Assembly (NCBI GenBank): GCA_030637025.1
Contig: DAOVVV010000044.1
Coordinates: 1-16,299, forward strand
Direction: 5' to 3'
Length of the DNA stretch: 16,299 nt
From: JAGLHV01 sp023143305 [NCBI: Clostridia bacterium]
Lineage (GTDB): Bacteria > CBDUZB01 > JAGLHV01
The notes below the pieces were generated by a model. It did not search any database. It saw nothing but the letters and a program-made list of their open reading frames with translations, and was not told where the DNA came from. The position numbers and the translations under genes were made by a program. The number at the start of each line of letters is the position of its first letter. Within the stretch, counting starts at the first letter, position 1. This document shows positions 4,909 through 16,073 of this stretch, in pieces.

Positions 4909-5006
4909 TAGACTTCTGCAAAATAGCCTTTTTACCTTTATTGCCTGCCCGCCAGTTCTTAAGGAGGGTCATTCCTGCGAAAGCAGGAATCTATCGGTAT
5001 TTAAAA
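4909..5006 (-). repeat. MITE/REPIN-like element, copy 1 (truncated, inverted)
   Basis: Begins TAGACTTCTGCAAAATAGCC and continues through a GCCCGCC/CTTAAGG block to the hairpin ATTCCTGC-GAAA-GCAGGAAT (4971-4990, 8 bp with a GNRA-type loop). It matches the reverse complement of the right half of copy 3 and fades out near 5006. The second hairpin and the second terminal repeat are missing. It lies 14 bp past the stop codon of the PASTA gene, within the untranslated space before mtnP. No U-run follows on either strand, so a terminator role is unproven. Confidence 0.85.
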
Positions 5007-5778: not shown

Positions 5779-5960
5779 AGAGTTCTGCAAAATACAATAT
5801 TCTACCTGCCTGTCCGCCAATCTTTAAGGCGAGTCTGCCAGTCCTTAAGGCGGGTCATTCCGCACTCGATGCGGAATCTACAATGTTTTTAAATATCAAT
5901 AGATTCCTGCTTTCGCAGGAATGACAATAAAGGTAAAAAAGGCTATTTTGCAAAAGTCTA
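5779..5960. repeat. MITE/REPIN-like element, copy 2
   Basis: Terminal repeats: AGAGTTCTGCAAAATA at the left and, on the other strand at the right end, AGACTTTTGCAAAATA. Inside are two perfect hairpins, ATTCCGCA-CTCGA-TGCGGAAT (5857-5877) and ATTCCTGC-TTTC-GCAGGAAT (5903-5922), and two GGCG/CTTAAGG blocks near the left end. In copy 3 that block lies beside the right hairpin, so the modules are shuffled between copies. The flanks AATTTTTTGAT (5767-5777) and AAATTTTCGAT (5960-5970) are similar but not identical. The element lies in the presumed leader of the leftward operon. Confidence 0.88.
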
Positions 5961-7137: not shown

Positions 7138-7294
7138 ATAGACTTCTGCAAAATAACACATTCTGTCATTCCGCACTTGATGCGGAATCTATAATATTCT
7201 TAAATATCAATAGATTCCTGCTTTCGCAGGAATGACCCGCCTTAAGGACTGGCGGACAGGCAATAAAGGTAAAAAGGCTATTTTGCAAAACTCT
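7138..7294. repeat. MITE/REPIN-like element, copy 3, with 12-bp flanking direct repeat
   Basis: The left end reads ATAGACTTCTGCAAAATA and the right end, on the other strand, AGAGTTTTGCAAAATA. Inside are ATTCCGCA-CTTGA-TGCGGAAT (7168-7188), ATTCCTGC-TTTC-GCAGGAAT (7214-7233) and a CCGCC/GGCGG pair. The element is bordered by TAGTTCATAATT on both sides (7126-7137 and 7295-7306), the form of a target-site duplication. No ORF is inside, so any mobility would need a transposase acting in trans. It sits immediately upstream of the clpB ribosome-binding site. Confidence 0.9.
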
Positions 7295-9966: not shown

Positions 9967-10057
9967 GGAGAGGTCGCATAGTTGGTCGAGTGCGCACGCC
10001 TGGAAAGTGTGTAACGGGGTAACTCGTTCGAGGGTCCGAATCCCTCCCTCTCCGCCA
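9967..10057 (+). tRNA. tRNA-Ser (anticodon GGA)
   Basis: A class II tRNA of 91 nt with encoded CCA. The acceptor stem GGAGAGG (9967-9973) pairs with CCTCTCC, followed by discriminator G and CCA. The D-arm stem is GCA/TGC. The anticodon stem CACGC/GTGTG encloses the loop CTGGAAA, with anticodon GGA at 10002-10004, reading UCC and UCU. The long variable arm contains AACG/CGTT. The T stem GAGGG/CCCTC holds the loop TCCGAAT. The long variable arm and discriminator G fit serine identity. This gene marks the boundary between housekeeping genes and the defence-like region. Confidence 0.97.
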
Positions 10058-10193: not shown

Positions 10194-10303
10194 AAACTGC
10201 ATTATTTTAAGTTTATGGCAATCCATCTTTTTTAAACAAACCTCCTTCTTCCCCTATCATTCATCCCTTTATCAAATAACAAATATCTACAACTTTATTT
10301 TAA

Positions 10304-10332
10304 TTGACTTTGTGTTTAAGTTATATTAAAAT
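10304..10332 (+). promoter_or_regulatory. Candidate sigma70-type promoter of the defence-like locus
   Basis: TTGACT (10304-10309) and TAAAAT (10327-10332), each 5 of 6 to consensus, lie exactly 17 bp apart. They imply a leader of about 145 nt before the ATG at 10487. It is the best promoter match of the region, although the sequence is AT-rich. Confidence 0.5.
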
Positions 10333-10360
10333 TAGTTTAAGTGAAATAAATAAATTATAT

Positions 10361-10449
10361 AGAAGTGGGGAAGAAGTAACTAAAAAGGAACAAGGTAGTA
10401 ACACACATAATAATTAGTTCCTAAAATACGCAACGTCCCCTATGTCTTC
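10361..10449 (+). ncRNA. Possible structured 5' leader
   Basis: Three nested pairings line up in one stem: GAAG/CTTC (10362-10365 with 10446-10449), GGGGA/TCCCC (10367-10371 with 10436-10440) and AGGAAC/GTTCCT (10386-10391 with 10417-10422). The segment lies between the candidate promoter and the start codon. It matches no riboswitch or retron RNA known to me, and no reverse transcriptase is nearby. It could be a leader, an unrelated small RNA or chance pairing. Confidence 0.25.
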
Positions 10450-10486: not shown

Positions 10487-12901
10487 ATGTATTCAAATGA
10501 AACAATTCAAAGTTCAGACACCAAGAGTTTTTGTCAATACATTAATTGTAATTGCCAAAAAAATTTGTCTAGACATAAAAAGGAAAAGACTTTTTTTCTT
10601 TACCCTGCCAATCCACCCCTTATTGCTTCAACAATAGAAAGATCTGCTGAACTACTCGCTAAAAAACATCAAAGTAAAGAATATCTAATCTGGAAGAATT
10701 TAAAAAATGAAGGAAAAATTGTTTTTTGTGAGATTTGCAAAGCAATTTTTTCTAGTTCATTATTAATATGTGATATTACAAACTTAAATTTTAATGTTTT
10801 ATTTGAAATAGGTTTTATTGTAGGTCTCTCTAAATCGTTTATTCCAATATTTGAAGGAAGCTATGAGCAGAATAAAAAAGTATTGAGTCAAGTTGGTCTA
10901 CTTGACACAATAGGATATAGAAAGTTTGCTAATTCAAATGATATTGTTAATATTGTTGAGTCTTGCCCAGTGAATAAGCTCATTCAGAGAAATGTTAAAG
11001 TTGATATTTTTCGTCCAATTTATTACTTAAAAAGTCCCATTGATTCGGATGGAAGCTTGCGAATTACCTCTGTGTTAAAAAAATCTCCTTTTAACTTTAG
11101 ACTTTATGACGCAAAAGAAAGATATCGATTGCCATTAGATAGCGCATTGAATGAAGTGGATAAATCAAGAGCTGTAATAGTCCATTTAATCGACCCTCAA
11201 AGACAAGATTCTTTAGTCCATAATGCTCGCTGTGCTTTTGTGGCAGGATTAGCTTTAGCATCTAAGAAAAGAGTTTTAATGATACAAGAGGGAAAGTTTG
11301 AAAGTCCAATAGATTATCGAGATATAGTTAACGAATATGAAACAATAGCACAAATTGATGTAATTATGGAAGATTTCATTAAATCTGTGGCTTTAACTCT
11401 ACAAACACCTGTTGAAAATATAGCTCCAATTAGTCGTTCTGAATTAGAGGAAATCGATATTGGAGATATTGCTGCAGAGAATGAAATTGAAAATTTAAGA
11501 GGATATTTTGTTAGAACAGGAGAATTTAACGCGGCAAGAAAAGGACATGTGCAGATAATTGTTGGAAGAAAGGGCAGTGGTAAAACCGCTTTATTTTATG
11601 CATTGAGACATCAAATTAATCCTTCTCGTCGGGATGTCTGTGTTTTAGATTTGAAGCCAGAAGGCTATCAGTTTGCTAGATTAAATGAAGAAATATTGCG
11701 AAAAATGACCCCGGCCGTTAGGCAGCACACTTTAACCGCTTTATGGGATTATGTTTTGCTTCTTGAGCTTACGCATAAAATTTTAAAAGATAAAAAAGAG
11801 GTTGCTATCGCGAATAGGAATGTAAAAAAGGGTAATGTTTGGAATTCTTTGAGAGAGGAATATGAATTGCATAGAAATTTAGAGCAGGGAGACTTCTCGG
11901 AAAGATTAAATGATTTAATAAATAAAATTATTGAGCGGTCACCCAAGATAGAATTAAGTAAAGGTTCACCCGGAATTACAGAGTTAATTTTCATTCACGA
12001 TATTGCTAAATTAAAAGAACTGCTTGCTGAATATTTATCAGACAAGGAGGAAGTTTGGCTTTTGTTCGACAATTTAGATAAAAATTGGAAAGCGAATAAG
12101 CAAAACGAACATGAAGTACTAATATTAAAGGCTTTGCTATCTGCAGGTCGAAAATTAAAAAAAATGCTAGTAAAAAGGAGAATTAATTTTCATAGTATAA
12201 TTTTTGTTAGAAGTGATATATATTCGTTTTTTTTAGAAGAAACAACAGATAGAGGGAAAGAGCAAGTTGTTTATTTAAATTGGGATGATGTAAATCTATT
12301 TAAAGTCATGTTTGGTTTGCGTGTCGATTATAATGCAAAAACTGTGGAAGATTTCAATGAAATTTGGACAAATATGTTTGATTTGCACATAGGAGCCATT
12401 AGTTCATTTAATTATATGATTGAGCGTACTTTGCAAAGACCAAGAGATTTCTTGCTATTTTCAGCCTATGCACTCCAGACAGCAATTAATCGAGGACATA
12501 ATAGAATAAACGCAGATGATATATTGCAGTCTGAGGAAACATATTCACGTGATTTATTTACTGGCTTATCTTATGAGATATCCGATGTTGATTCAAATCT
12601 AAGAGACGTTTTATATTGTTTTCTTGAAACGGAAGCTACTTTATATGAAAATCAAATTGGCGAATTATTGATAAAAGGTAACATACCTAGCTCAAAAATA
12701 AAGAGTGTAATTGAAAAATTATTATGGTTTGGTTTCCTTGGAATCTTAACCTCAAAGATGGAAGAGAGATATGCTTATTCTGTTGGATACGATATAAGGA
12801 AACTGTTAAAATTAAGTGATTGGGTTCAAAAAGAAAATTCTGAGAGAATTTATAGTATACATCCTGGTTTTAGAAAGGTATTAGAAATAAAGAATAAGTA
12901 A
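10487..12901 (+). CDS. Double TIR/nucleoside-deoxyribosyltransferase-like protein fused to Sll1717-like P-loop ATPase
   Basis: Unnamed 804-residue protein, probably an anti-phage or stress ATPase. A short Cys-bearing N-terminus (C16, C21, C23) precedes a Rossmann-like module (about 33-160) with CDITNLNFNVLFEIGF (95-110). The Asp96 and Glu107 pattern resembles TIR-like and nucleoside 2-deoxyribosyltransferase-like domains, where the Glu is catalytic. A second, more diverged module (about 175-300) has SRAVIVHLID and VAGLALASKKRVLMI. The ATPase part has Walker A GRKGSGKT (360-367), Walker B LLFDNLDKNW (525-534), FVRSDIY (573-579), RPRD (651-654) and a C-terminal winged-helix-like segment (about 700-770), an arrangement I associate with Sll1717-family P-loop proteins. 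No signal peptide or TM helix. Arg codons are mostly AGA, unlike clpB. The family assignment is from motifs; NAD or nucleotide cleavage is inference. Confidence 0.72.
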   Translation: MYSNETIQSSDTKSFCQYINCNCQKNLSRHKKEKTFFLYPANPPLIASTIERSAELLAKKHQSKEYLIWKNLKNEGKIVFCEICKAIFSSSLLICDITNLNFNVLFEIGFIVGLSKSFIPIFEGSYEQNKKVLSQVGLLDTIGYRKFANSNDIVNIVESCPVNKLIQRNVKVDIFRPIYYLKSPIDSDGSLRITSVLKKSPFNFRLYDAKERYRLPLDSALNEVDKSRAVIVHLIDPQRQDSLVHNARCAFVAGLALASKKRVLMIQEGKFESPIDYRDIVNEYETIAQIDVIMEDFIKSVALTLQTPVENIAPISRSELEEIDIGDIAAENEIENLRGYFVRTGEFNAARKGHVQIIVGRKGSGKTALFYALRHQINPSRRDVCVLDLKPEGYQFARLNEEILRKMTPAVRQHTLTALWDYVLLLELTHKILKDKKEVAIANRNVKKGNVWNSLREEYELHRNLEQGDFSERLNDLINKIIERSPKIELSKGSPGITELIFIHDIAKLKELLAEYLSDKEEVWLLFDNLDKNWKANKQNEHEVLILKALLSAGRKLKKMLVKRRINFHSIIFVRSDIYSFFLEETTDRGKEQVVYLNWDDVNLFKVMFGLRVDYNAKTVEDFNEIWTNMFDLHIGAISSFNYMIERTLQRPRDFLLFSAYALQTAINRGHNRINADDILQSEETYSRDLFTGLSYEISDVDSNLRDVLYCFLETEATLYENQIGELLIKGNIPSSKIKSVIEKLLWFGFLGILTSKMEERYAYSVGYDIRKLLKLSDWVQKENSERIYSIHPGFRKVLEIKNK

Positions 12902-13170: not shown

Positions 13171-14304
13171 ATGAGTATAGATGGCGGATATTACGCTATA
13201 AAAGGTTTTATATATCAATACGATGCAACTATTTTAAAAATTATGAATGTTCCATCTGAAGATGATCTGATTGCTATTGAATGCATCCAAGATTTTTCAA
13301 CAAAAGATGAGATATATCAAATAAAATATAAAGAAGCTCAAAATTATTCATCATCAAAAATTAAAAAAGCGGTTATTCAACTAATAGAAGAATGGAAAAA
13401 AAATAGTAGTTTGAAATATTATTTAATAGCGTATTTTAAAGACAAACAACCCCAAGAAAAGATTTTTACACATGACGAAATAAAGGGTGTGATTAGTAAG
13501 GAATCACTGCTATATTCTGACGAAGATCTTCAAAATTTTTGCCATAATTTTGTCTTAGCTTTTACGGTGGATTATAACAATCAGACACAGTTGGTCTTGA
13601 AATCAATAAAAAAATTTGCTAAAGACGATGAAAAAACTTTGTTGTGGTATTGGTGTTTCTTCCGTTATTTAACAGATAAAGTAGCATCTAATCAAAATTT
13701 GGCTAAAAGAATATGTACTCGAAGAGAGATATTGGAAAAAGTTAATGCTTTTGAGCAAAAATATTTTGATTGTTCATATAAACAATTTTTAGGGAAAAGA
13801 AGATATTTGAATTATATAAAGAAAAAAGTATTTCCATCTCGCTTGAATACTCCTACTAAAAAAAGATTGTTTATTTTAGAGCTAAAAGAGAAAGATTCTA
13901 ATAATAAAATTGCTAATGTTTTACGAAAAATATCAGATCATTTTATAAAAAAAACCACTAACCACTTTTTGGGAGATGCTCCATATATATTACTAAAAAA
14001 CATTAATAAAGAAAAACAAATTGAATTAAAAGAGAAATTATATTCTGGAAACTTCAATTTTGTTGATGGGTATCCTTTTTATGGCTCAAATTTTAAAAAG
14101 GATTGTTTAACTCAAAATTTTAAAAACCATAAAAATGATGTAATTAAAGTTAGGATTTTTAACTCTGATAAAGAACTGCAATTAATCTCCGAAAATTATT
14201 GGAATGAGATTTATGATTTTACAATAACAGGCATTGACTTTTCTTCTGATACGATTACAAAGGTATATGTTGATGATATAGATGAGATAAAACAAATTTT
14301 GTGA
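13171..14304 (+). CDS. DUF4297/Cap4-like PD-(D/E)XK endonuclease candidate, HerA partner
   Basis: Probable DNA-cleaving subunit of a HerA-associated defence complex. The N-terminus has the KGFIYQYDATI segment (11-21), similar to the conserved G-F-x-YQ helix of DUF4297 and Cap4 nucleases. The candidate PD-(D/E)XK core is E37-x3-D41 (ECIQD) followed by Q50-x-K52 (QIKYKE), with the usual strand-turn-strand spacing. Residues 100-377 are Lys-rich, contain no recognisable second catalytic motif, and probably mediate assembly or nucleic-acid binding. A strong AAGGTGGTGG ribosome site precedes the ATG. The TGA is 8 bp from the herA start, so the two are almost certainly co-translated. The gene is markedly AT-rich, as its neighbours are. 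The protein is shorter than many DUF4297 members; a more distant restriction-type nuclease is the alternative. Confidence 0.65.
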   Translation: MSIDGGYYAIKGFIYQYDATILKIMNVPSEDDLIAIECIQDFSTKDEIYQIKYKEAQNYSSSKIKKAVIQLIEEWKKNSSLKYYLIAYFKDKQPQEKIFTHDEIKGVISKESLLYSDEDLQNFCHNFVLAFTVDYNNQTQLVLKSIKKFAKDDEKTLLWYWCFFRYLTDKVASNQNLAKRICTRREILEKVNAFEQKYFDCSYKQFLGKRRYLNYIKKKVFPSRLNTPTKKRLFILELKEKDSNNKIANVLRKISDHFIKKTTNHFLGDAPYILLKNINKEKQIELKEKLYSGNFNFVDGYPFYGSNFKKDCLTQNFKNHKNDVIKVRIFNSDKELQLISENYWNEIYDFTITGIDFSSDTITKVYVDDIDEIKQIL

Positions 14305-14312
14305 GGTGATTT

Positions 14313-16073
14313 ATGGGTAAAGAATATTTTGGTGATGTTATTGCCGTTTATCCTAATAAGATACGTATAGCGATTGACAAAGAGAAATACGATGGTATGG
14401 ATGATGAGCAATTAAAAAAATTTACGTTAGGTGCATATCTTGAAATATCTGATAAAGAAGATGCAAAAATATTATCGATTATTGAAAATTTTTCTATAAC
14501 CTGTGAAACAGATAAAGATGGAAAAGAAAAGAAAAAGTATATTATTGAGGCATTGCCGCTGGGAAGCATAGTTGACGGAAAATTTAAACGAGGTGGGGAT
14601 AGCATTGTTTTGCCACCGAAAGGGATGAGTCCAGCTTCCGAAGTTGATATTAAAAATGTTTATGAAGGCTGGATTGAAAAAGATAAAAAATTCAAATTTT
14701 CTAAGCTAATACAAAATGATAACGTTCAGGTTTCCGTTGATGGAAATCGATTTTTCAATAAACATTTTGCGATAATTGGAGCCACTGGTTCTGGTAAATC
14801 TTGTTCTGTGGCAAAAATATTACAAGAGGCGATTAAAACTAAAAATGCCGGATATCAAGAGCTTAATAATTCACACATCATTTTATTTGATATTCACGGT
14901 GAGTATAAAACAGCTTTTCCAGAATGCAATTATTTAGAGTTACAAAATTTAAAAATTCCGTATTGGCTTTTTGATAGTGAAGAACTTGGTGAGTTATTCA
15001 TTGAAAGCAATGAACAAAATTCTCATAATCAAATATCGCAGTTTAGATTTTGTGTTACGGAAAATAAAAAATTAAAAAACCAGGATATTCCATCGAGTAA
15101 AGTTTTTTACGATTCATCATTAAAATTTAGTATAGAAGAAGTTGTTAGGTATATAAAAAATGTAAATAACGAGTTGATAAATAAAAATAAAAATCGAACT
15201 CCGGCAGATAAAAATGGAATACTTATAAACAACCGCATTCCTGATTATTTTAACAGGGAATTTGAATTTAGTAAGATTGATTCGGGATACGTGAATGGGC
15301 CTTATACGGGAGATTTTGAACGTTTTGTCATGAGATTGGAGACGACCATAAATAACCCTCGTTTAAACTTTATATTTAAAGATATTGATTCTGTAACGAT
15401 TGAAGATGTTCTGCGGAAATTTATTGGATATTTAGATGATAAAAAATCAAATATTACTGTAATTGATCTTGGTGGAATACCTTTTGAAGTTTTGAGCATA
15501 ACGGTTTCTCTTATTTCAAGACTATTATTTGATTTTGGATTCTATTACAAAAAATATCTTTCTAAAAAAGGAATTATTTGTGAAACTCCTTTGCTATTAG
15601 TGTATGAAGAAGCACATAAATACGTTCCTAGAAGTGAATTGGTGAGATATAGAGCATCAAAAAATGCTATTGAGAGAATTGCTAAAGAGGGTCGAAAATA
15701 TGGTGTGACACTTGGGATTGTGAGCCAAAGGCCTTCAGAAATATCTGAGACTATTTTTTCGCAATGCAATAATTTTATTGCCATGAGGTTAACAAATCCA
15801 AATGACCAAGCATATGTAAAGCGGTTATTGCCTGATAATATTGGGGGTTTAATAGATGTTTTACCTTCTCTCCAACAAGGTGAAGGGTTATTAATTGGTG
15901 ATGCTATCGTTATGCCTACACTGATTAAAATAGATAAGTGCAATAAGGAACCTTCATCGAGTGATATTCCATATTATGATATTTGGAAGGAGCAATGGAA
16001 AGATGTGTTGTTTGAAAAAATAACAGAAAACTGGCAAGGGAAAAGCAAGGACAATAAGGAACATAACACATAG
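14313..16073 (+). CDS. HerA-type DNA translocase/helicase
   Basis: Hexameric FtsK/HerA-superfamily ATPase that moves on duplex DNA; here it likely loads or powers the adjacent nuclease. The 586 residues begin with a HAS-barrel-like beta domain (about 1-110). The motor then shows Walker A GATGSGKS (156-163), the FDIHGEY motif (192-198), and Walker B LLLVYEEAHKYVP (427-439). Next come EGRKYGVTLGIVSQRPSEI with the likely arginine finger and sensor, and a C-terminal GEGLLIGDAIVMP strand pair typical of HerA. The insert of about 230 residues between the second and third motifs is usual for this family. The ribosome site GAGGTGA overlaps the upstream stop region. NurA, the archaeal repair partner, is absent; the nuclease upstream takes its place. 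Confidence 0.93.
   Translation: MGKEYFGDVIAVYPNKIRIAIDKEKYDGMDDEQLKKFTLGAYLEISDKEDAKILSIIENFSITCETDKDGKEKKKYIIEALPLGSIVDGKFKRGGDSIVLPPKGMSPASEVDIKNVYEGWIEKDKKFKFSKLIQNDNVQVSVDGNRFFNKHFAIIGATGSGKSCSVAKILQEAIKTKNAGYQELNNSHIILFDIHGEYKTAFPECNYLELQNLKIPYWLFDSEELGELFIESNEQNSHNQISQFRFCVTENKKLKNQDIPSSKVFYDSSLKFSIEEVVRYIKNVNNELINKNKNRTPADKNGILINNRIPDYFNREFEFSKIDSGYVNGPYTGDFERFVMRLETTINNPRLNFIFKDIDSVTIEDVLRKFIGYLDDKKSNITVIDLGGIPFEVLSITVSLISRLLFDFGFYYKKYLSKKGIICETPLLLVYEEAHKYVPRSELVRYRASKNAIERIAKEGRKYGVTLGIVSQRPSEISETIFSQCNNFIAMRLTNPNDQAYVKRLLPDNIGGLIDVLPSLQQGEGLLIGDAIVMPTLIKIDKCNKEPSSSDIPYYDIWKEQWKDVLFEKITENWQGKSKDNKEHNT

What the first reader, a model, noticed from the sequence alone, without database searches (positions are those of the whole stretch)
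10487..12901. Two TIR/NDT-like modules fused to an Sll1717-like ATPase in one protein
Seen: two Rossmann-like segments (33-160 and 175-300), the first with the Asp-x-T-x-L-N / F-E-x-G signature, followed by a complete P-loop ATPase (GRKGSGKT, LLFDNLDKNW, RPRD) and a winged-helix-like end. Known: TIR and nucleoside-deoxyribosyltransferase-like domains in defence proteins cleave NAD or nucleotides or make signals, and ATPase fusions often act as infection sensors. Inferred: a single-protein abortive-infection device in which a diverged second module could be a sensor or pseudo-enzyme beside an active first one. I know of no named system with this exact order.
Basis: partly seen in the sequence, partly recalled or inferred. 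Interest (0 to 1): 0.75.

Follow-up and report, generated by a model that had tools for sequence, protein, structure and literature searches.

The report
Two TIR-like modules on an ATPase
This bacterial gene encodes one large protein that joins two immune-type (TIR-like) domains, one apparently active and one worn down, to an ATP-driven switch, and it sits beside a known virus-defence system, so it is probably a one-protein alarm against viruses.

Summary
ORF 10487-12901 (804 aa) holds two TIR-like Rossmann modules (about 32-160 and 174-311) and an Sll1717-family ATPase (325-799; 289 bits, cut-off 75). Full-length relatives fall in 11 named phylum-level groups. Glu107 is kept in 57 of 57 aligned members and 33 of 33 further module-1 hits; the matching place in module 2 is I/V/L/A. 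The AlphaFold model (pLDDT 91, pTM 0.89 for residues 31-318) shows two domains: module 1 matches DNPH1 and SARM1 TIR, module 2 TIR-STING and plant TIRs. Module 1 keeps the Glu shared by TIR and NDT enzymes but lacks the Tyr and Asp of DNPH1, which points to NAD cleavage. The ATPase resembles ORC/Cdc6, SSO1545 and NB-ARC switches. No partner gene recurs. The gene lies between tRNA-Ser and a DUF4297-HerA pair; in a same-genus genome that tRNA carries SIR2 and TOTE genes instead. Best reading: a stand-alone, NLR-like defence protein with one active and one pseudo-TIR module. Activity, trigger and phage protection are untested. No named system with this order was found, in a limited literature search.

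The parts
10487..12901 (+). Whole ORF, 804 aa: TIR/NDT-like module 1, degenerate TIR-like module 2, Sll1717-type P-loop ATPase with a C-terminal small domain
10529..10555 (+). N-terminal motif, residues 15-23 (FCQYINCNC here; FC[QE]YA...C in relatives), in a low-confidence extension; 11 of 57 members, all in the 12-member clade of this protein
10580..10966 (+). Module 1 (residues 32-160), TIR/NDT-like Rossmann domain, predicted catalytic
10805..10807 (+). Codon of Glu107, predicted catalytic residue, 57/57, aligned with SARM1 E642 and DNPH1 E104
11006..11419 (+). Module 2 (residues 174-311), TIR-like fold without the catalytic Glu (position 252 is I23/V21/L9/A3), own conserved set N246, R248, G254, P274, D276, D279, E211, R214
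11444..12586 (+). Sll1717-family AAA+/STAND-like ATPase core (residues 320-700)
11564..11587 (+). Walker A GRKGSGKT (360-367)
12608..12883 (+). C-terminal domain 708-799, aligned with the C-terminal parts of ORC/Cdc6-like ATPases (winged helix by analogy, recalled)
9967..10057 (+). tRNA-Ser(GGA), boundary of the variable defence locus
13171..14304 (+). Neighbour: DUF4297-type anti-phage protein
   Evidence: PADLOC 160.2 bits; NCBIfam 177.9 bits, below its cut-off of 300
14313..16073 (+). Neighbour: anti-phage HerA ATPase, partner of DUF4297
   Evidence: PADLOC 775.9 bits; NCBIfam 784.6 bits, below its cut-off of 850

Best explanation
A stand-alone, NLR-like anti-phage protein. The AAA+/STAND-like ATPase with its C-terminal domain is the switch: it senses infection (trigger unknown) and, on ATP binding or exchange, assembles into oligomers. 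Assembly brings the N-terminal module-1 TIR-like domains together, and Glu107 then cleaves NAD+ (or a close nucleotide), depleting it or making a signal, so that the infected cell stops before phage release. Module 2 is a pseudo-TIR that lost the catalytic Glu and serves as a built-in partner: it holds module 1 inactive or completes its site on activation. Shown by the calls: two predicted folds, the ATPase family, the invariant Glu and its absence in module 2, phyla mixed in the gene tree, and a defence neighbour in a variable locus. Inferred: NAD+ as substrate, oligomerisation, phage trigger, abortive outcome, role of module 2.
For: NF047389 289.3 bits; AF2 full length pLDDT 88.4, pTM 0.86, residues 31-318 pLDDT 91.3, pTM 0.89. 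Module 1 against DNPH1 Z 10.7 (127 aligned, 2.6 A) and SARM1 TIR Z 10.0 (123, 2.6 A); module 2 against TIR-STING Z 11.0 (134, 3.4 A) and RUN1 TIR Z 10.4 (129, 3.3 A). ATPase against SSO1545 Z 13.9, ORC2 13.9, NRC4 12.8, CED-4 12.3; RPP1 (a TIR-NLR) Z 12.0 over 423 residues but at 18 A rmsd, so only piecewise. E107, N101 and N103 57/57, D96 55/57; Glu in 33/33 more hits. Position 36 (DNPH1 Tyr24) is F47/L8/H1/gap1, never Tyr; position 83 (DNPH1 Asp80) is I37/V19/T1. PADLOC at E <= 1e-15: 100 families hit among 120 flanking ORFs of 20 relatives, 11 among 119 ORFs elsewhere on the same contigs. No recurring partner among 388 flanking ORFs of 77 loci except two recombinase clusters.
Against: No activity is measured. 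This protein's own N-terminal half hits no TIR or NDT profile, and a TIR-named Pfam model is hit by 1 of 57 members; by sequence NDT/DNPH1 profiles match better. Unrelated Rossmann folds reach Z 9-10 with module 2 (flavodoxin-like 9.9, glycosyltransferases 9.1), so the TIR match leads by only about 1. The ATPase matches ORC/Cdc6 at least as well as NB-ARC, so a DNA-binding role is not excluded. There is no C-terminal repeat domain. The PADLOC contrast counts families, not proteins, and one Type I restriction operon can give many; the control set also holds hits (a DRT reverse transcriptase, mad3 twice, DpdF/Cas3-like and others). The module 1 to module 2 register by sequence is weak. One relative lies among metabolic genes.
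Confidence: 0.56

Rival explanations
1. Module 1 is a deoxynucleotide N-hydrolase or deoxyribosyltransferase-like enzyme (DNPH1/NDT type) that depletes dNMPs or a modified phage nucleotide, rather than NAD+.
For: Best sequence match of the module-1 profile in the PDB is DNPH1/Rcl (2.4e-5); 30 of 57 members hit PF05014; one relative is annotated nucleoside 2-deoxyribosyltransferase.
Against: The Tyr and Asp of the DNPH1 active site are at positions that are never Tyr or Asp in the 57. Retron-Eco1, with an NDT-like effector, works through NAD+ hydrolysis (PMC12405507, passages).
Confidence: 0.2
2. Module 2 is the sensor: a non-catalytic TIR/SLOG-like pocket that binds a nucleotide signal made elsewhere, and the ATPase passes it on to module 1.
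For: Module 2 has its own kept polar set (N246 55/57, R248 54/57, D276 56/57, D279 55/57, E211 56/57, R214 53/57) on a TIR-like fold; members of the TIR-DrHyd-SLOG clade are described as nucleotide sensors too (PMC9503650, passages).
Against: No signal-making gene recurs next to the family. The set could equally serve packing.
Confidence: 0.25
3. It is an ORC/Cdc6-like DNA-bound regulator of a mobile element, and the TIR-like modules only bind nucleotides.
For: ATPase aligns with ORC2 and Cdc6 over most of its length (Z 13-14); weak ORC-CDC6-like Pfam hits (6 of 57 members at E <= 0.01); plasmid and viral-contig carriage.
Against: Invariant Glu107 argues for catalysis; no replication or conjugation gene recurs beside it.
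Confidence: 0.1

Closest known systems
Sll1717-family P-loop ATPases (NCBIfam NF047389)
   Same: The ATPase half is a clear member, 289.3 bits against 75.
   Different: Of 386 genomes, 17 have a match over the cut-off, in open frames of 206 to 893 aa. Of 13 ORFs with an ATPase hit in 15 re-read loci, 2 (L156, L157) carry both modules and 6 are 509-517 aa long with no module hit.
TIR-NLR / STAND immune receptors (plant RPP1; bacterial STAND such as Avs, recalled)
   Same: TIR-like effector in front of an AAA+/NB-ARC-like switch; the ATPase fold matches NRC4, CED-4 and RPP1.
   Different: Two TIR-like modules, one without the Glu; no C-terminal repeat sensor; the ATPase matches ORC/Cdc6 and SSO1545 at least as well.
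DUF4062 (Swarozyc) TIR-like NADases
   Same: TIR-like domain with distant similarity to TIR and NDT, conserved Glu, next to a NACHT ATPase in human proteins (PMC13174449, passages).
   Different: Different domain family by the tools used here (no DUF4062 hit in P0001 or among the families listed for 57 members). A DUF4062 gene lies next to one Rhodococcus relative.
NDT-like effector of Retron-Eco1
   Same: NDT-like effector in a system that defends by NAD+ hydrolysis (PMC12405507, passages).
   Different: Stand-alone effector of a reverse transcriptase and msDNA system; no ATPase fusion in the passages seen.
DNPH1/Rcl nucleotide N-hydrolase
   Same: Closest solved sequence relative of module 1 and fold match Z 10.7.
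   Different: Its Tyr24 and Asp80 positions hold neither residue in any of 57 members.

Membership tests
Sll1717-family ATPase (NF047389) | Profile score over the curated cut-off (75 bits) | tested here: met
   289.3 bits, residues 325-799
TIR domain (NADase type) | TIR-like fold | tested here: met
   Module 1 vs SARM1 TIR Z 10.0, 123 aligned, 2.6 A; module 2 vs TIR-STING Z 11.0, 134 aligned, 3.4 A; for module 2 other Rossmann folds come within about 1 in Z
TIR domain (NADase type) | Catalytic Glu in the helix after the third strand | tested here: met
   Module 1 only: E107 57/57, aligned with SARM1 E642 (SARM1 sequence recalled); module 2 lacks it
TIR domain (NADase type) | Match to a TIR profile | tested here: inconclusive
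   P0001 hits no TIR family of Pfam at E <= 1; 1 of 57 members hits CAP12-PCTIR_TIR at 0.0024; 38 of 57 hit PADLOC Effector TIR, best 1.3e-6
TIR domain (NADase type) | NAD+ cleavage | not testable with these tools
   No assay possible
Nucleoside deoxyribosyltransferase / DNPH1 | PF05014 profile | tested here: inconclusive
   P0001 itself no hit at E <= 1; 30 of 57 members hit at E <= 0.01
Nucleoside deoxyribosyltransferase / DNPH1 | Active-site Tyr and Asp besides Glu | tested here: not met
   Positions 36 and 83 are never Tyr or Asp in 57 (DNPH1 sequence and residue roles of Asp80 recalled; the Tyr from PMC11204291, passage)
STAND/NLR receptor | NB-ARC/AAA+ switch with effector N-terminus | tested here: inconclusive
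   Fold matches to NB-ARC proteins and to ORC/Cdc6 are of similar Z
STAND/NLR receptor | C-terminal repeat sensor | tested here: not met
   Protein ends about 100 residues after the ATPase core, no repeat array in the model and no repeat family among the Pfam hits
DUF4297-HerA defence system (neighbour genes) | Adjacent DUF4297 and HerA genes | tested here: met
   PADLOC 160.2 and 775.9 bits, though both below NCBIfam equivalog cut-offs
DUF4297-HerA defence system (neighbour genes) | P0001 as a component of that system | tested here: not met
   No partner cluster recurs near 77 relatives apart from recombinases; the described system has two components (PMC11291478, abstract and outline)

The most novel reading that the evidence does not exclude
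A self-contained TIR pair: the pseudo-TIR module 2 is a permanent intramolecular partner of the catalytic module 1, so the composite TIR site is made or broken inside one chain by the ATPase rather than by assembly of many TIR domains. This would be a distinct way to gate a TIR enzyme, in an unnamed one-gene, NLR-like defence family spread over many phyla.
Probability: 0.25. Interest if true: 0.7.

Novelty: new variant of a known kind. Interest (0 to 1): 0.52.

Why it matters
From general knowledge (recalled), TIR enzymes are switched on by assembling several TIR domains. A conserved protein that carries an active and an inactive TIR-like module in one chain, fused to an NLR-like ATPase and with no recurring partner gene, gives a compact system in which TIR gating can be tested by single-residue changes. 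It would also suggest a function for an ATPase family, Sll1717, for whose name the open library holds no paper.

Tried and rejected
A single non-TIR domain for residues 33-300 was rejected: two separate folds with high confidence. NDT/DNPH1 membership was considered first because of PF05014 and DNPH1 hits, then lowered because two of its active-site residues are absent. Homology of module 1 to module 2 by sequence remains weak: hhalign probability 18.8, E 0.0012 over 53 columns; the module-1 profile finds module 2 significantly in no member (best E 0.29, in P0001, in the register N101 on N246). Module 2 alone hits nothing sensible by sequence in the PDB (best E 0.1, a ribosomal protein). The top Foldseek hits for the N-terminal part, the double GTPase EngA (TM 0.27, rmsd about 17 A), are two-Rossmann look-alikes and were not followed.

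A recurring partner gene was sought and not found: 388 flanking ORFs (up to three on either side, 100 aa or more, called naively) of 77 loci gave two clusters that reach three loci or more (four loci each), a tyrosine integrase and a serine recombinase, named by eye from the sequence. Not in that count: L089 (own gene not in the ORF list) and the six loci with stops inside the match (L037, L038, L040, L075, L082, L091). A SIR2-like gene beside one stand-alone Sll1717 ATPase (L153) looked right by eye but had no Pfam hit at 0.001, so it is not used. A second copy of the tRNA 3' end in the window was not found. Paper searches: Sll1717, none; a five-term NDT, TIR, phage, defense, ATPase search, none; DRHyd, 15, of which one was read in passages; deoxyribosyltransferase with anti-phage and NTPase, 1; a STAND and TIR search, 12, seen as a listing only; nucleoside 2-deoxyribosyltransferase with antiphage, 3; Retron-Eco1, 18 (12 listed); tandem TIR, 1; DS41, none.

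Selection: A2 holds P0001 and 56 of the 84 loci. Left out were 28: copies cut or broken, and others only to limit size. Of these 28, 23 show module 1 with the Glu; the other five (L045, L073, L076, L080, L088) show no whole module 1: four begin within about 230 bases of the locus edge, and L080 looks broken inside module 1. Copies that appear broken or split: L007, L010, L038, L075, L080, L082. For the flank comparison 20 loci with long contigs were chosen; 39 of the 40 loci sent to one search were held (L047 was not).

Full report
What is there. The ORF at 10487-12901 (+, 804 aa) begins 429 bases after a tRNA-Ser(GGA) gene (9967-10057) and is followed, after a gap of 269 bases, by a DUF4297 gene and a HerA gene (13171-14304, 14313-16073). 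These two are a DUF4297-HerA anti-phage pair by PADLOC (160.2 and 775.9 bits), though both lie below NCBIfam's equivalog cut-offs (177.9 against 300, 784.6 against 850). Upstream of the tRNA the window is housekeeping: clpB- and ftsEX-like genes and others, named by eye from the translations. The nearest held genome, G001, has the gene at 100%, and the nearest named relative is a Candidatus Omnitrophota bin (L012, 57-58%).

The ATPase half is a certain Sll1717-family ATPase (NF047389, 289.3 bits, cut-off 75). Its predicted fold aligns best with the archaeal AAA+ ATPase SSO1545 and ORC2 (Z 13.9 each), Cdc6 (13.2) and the NB-ARC proteins NRC4 (12.8) and CED-4 (12.3). These differ little in Z, so ORC/Cdc6-like and NLR-like cannot be separated by fold.

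The N-terminal half. P0001 alone gives no family hit there. Of 57 aligned members (A2), 30 hit PF05014 and 1 hits CAP12-PCTIR_TIR, and 38 hit a PADLOC TIR effector model. The module-1 profile finds DNPH1/Rcl in the PDB (2.4e-5). AlphaFold2 on residues 31-318 gives pLDDT 91.3, pTM 0.89 and two like-built domains, 33-159 and 178-305 (the full-length model agrees). Module 1 aligns with DNPH1 (Z 10.7) and SARM1 TIR (Z 10.0), module 2 with TIR-STING (Z 11.0) and plant TIRs (Z 9.3-10.4). Module 2 also reaches flavodoxin-like domains (up to Z 9.9), so its fold class is surer than its family.

Active and inactive. In 57 members W69, G76, N101, N103 and E107 never vary and D96 is kept in 55. The 33 further module-1 hits outside A2 keep the Glu: 32 with the same motif, and L011 with Ser in place of N101. 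Placing human SARM1 and DNPH1 (sequences recalled) in the alignment puts E107 on SARM1 E642 and DNPH1 E104, F36 on SARM1 F565 and DNPH1 Y24, and I83 on DNPH1 D80. Position 36 is F47/L8/H1 with one gap; position 83 is I37/V19/T1. A Tyr that hydrogen-bonds the Glu marks NDTs and DNPH1, whereas NADase TIRs usually have Phe or Ala there (PMC11204291, passage). So the residues point to a TIR-type NADase, within the TIR-DrHyd-SLOG class described in PMC9503650 (passages). The BB-loop glycine of SARM1 falls one column away from the invariant G76 in this alignment, so that comparison is inconclusive. In module 2 the position matching E107, residue 252 by the register of hhalign and by spacing from G254 and K261, is I23/V21/L9/A3, while a different polar set is kept (N246 55/57, R248 54/57, D276 56/57, D279 55/57, E211 56/57, R214 53/57). 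The simplest reading is one enzyme and one pseudo-enzyme.

Spread and setting. The tree of 57 (midpoint root) mixes phyla: starred branches force at least 4 changes for Pseudomonadota and 3 for the 3 Thermodesulfobacteriota rows, and two viral contigs are near-neighbours of a Chloroflexi bin and a Bradyrhizobium. Phylum labels are still clustered more than in shuffles (13 changes against a mean of 18.5), and such counts are no proof of transfer; together with plasmid carriage and copies that look broken they fit horizontal spread. Of 39 genomes searched, 38 gave one match and one gave two. Flanking ORFs share no partner. PADLOC models at E <= 1e-15 hit 100 families among 120 flanking ORFs of 20 loci (Type I and IIG restriction, ThsB, PDC-S11, DrmMI and others among the 25 shown), against 11 among 119 ORFs from elsewhere on the same contigs (which include a DRT reverse transcriptase and mad3). 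These are families, not proteins, and one operon can give many, so I take the contrast as a direction, not a rate. Of 8 plasmid regions read, the annotated neighbours include AbiEi and N-6 methylase (L004), RES (L006), PemK/MazF (L008), MazF (L009), TIR and DUF4062 (L010); the Ensifer relative (L008) otherwise lies among metabolic genes and the Leptolyngbya one (L011) among conjugation genes.

The locus itself is a hot spot. In same-genus genome G002 the same tRNA-Ser (96% over 152 bp) is followed instead by a SIR2_2 gene (9e-10) and an AEP-TOTE gene (1.1e-27), and a DUF3800 gene sits between clpB and the tRNA. Long homology stops at the tRNA end and resumes in a 228-bp noncoding block before the cargo (88.6%). 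That block is a dispersed repeat (2, 14 and 5 matches in G001, G002 and G003, this locus included), with short ORFs beside two copies that look by eye like the end of an IS200-type transposase. Rfam finds only the tRNA in the window.

Mechanism. I propose that the ATPase with its C-terminal domain senses infection and assembles, that assembly lets Glu107 of module 1 cleave NAD+, and that module 2 restrains or completes module 1. Predicted structure, family, Glu conservation and setting are shown; substrate, trigger, oligomer and outcome are inferred. Known parallels are Retron-Eco1, with an NDT-like effector and NAD+ hydrolysis (PMC12405507, passages), DUF4062 TIR-like NADases (PMC13174449, passages) and two diverged tandem TIRs in Dictyostelium TirE (PMC13142454, passage). 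None has this order of domains, as far as these passages tell.

Verdict. A real, widespread protein family that probably moves between species, most likely a one-gene defence system; a new variant of the TIR-plus-ATPase kind rather than something wholly new. The two-module N-terminus is the surprising part. On checking, I lowered the main confidence from 0.58 to 0.56, because for module 2 the TIR match leads other Rossmann folds by only about 1 in Z.

Noticed in passing
window 10529-10555 (residues 15-23); L012, L013, L015-L020, L023, L092: Short N-terminal Cys motif (FC[QE]YA...C in most) in front of module 1 in 11 of 57 members, all within one 12-member clade. Its role is unknown.
   Followed up: partly
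window 9967-10057 and L102 2876-2966: tRNA-Ser(GGA) beside clpB is a variable defence hot spot: this gene and DUF4297-HerA here, SIR2_2 and AEP-TOTE in a same-genus genome.
   Followed up: yes
window 10217-10443: Noncoding block repeated in same-genus genomes (21 matches in three genomes, one of them this locus itself in G001), with IS200-type transposase remnants, judged by eye, beside two copies.
   Followed up: partly
window 4910-5004, 5854-5925, 7165-7294: Dispersed intergenic repeats, 92-95% alike in their main pieces, partly inverted.
   Followed up: no
L158, L160: Stand-alone Sll1717-type ATPases lie near a PHP-AAA protein and a DNA methylase (L158), and near GmrSD_N and HsdM proteins (L160), so the ATPase family seems to keep company with several kinds of defence genes.
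   Followed up: partly
L010 10752-14390: A DUF4062 gene (the domain of the newly described Swarozyc NADases) lies next to a split relative in a Rhodococcus plasmid, with a TIR gene on the other side.
   Followed up: no
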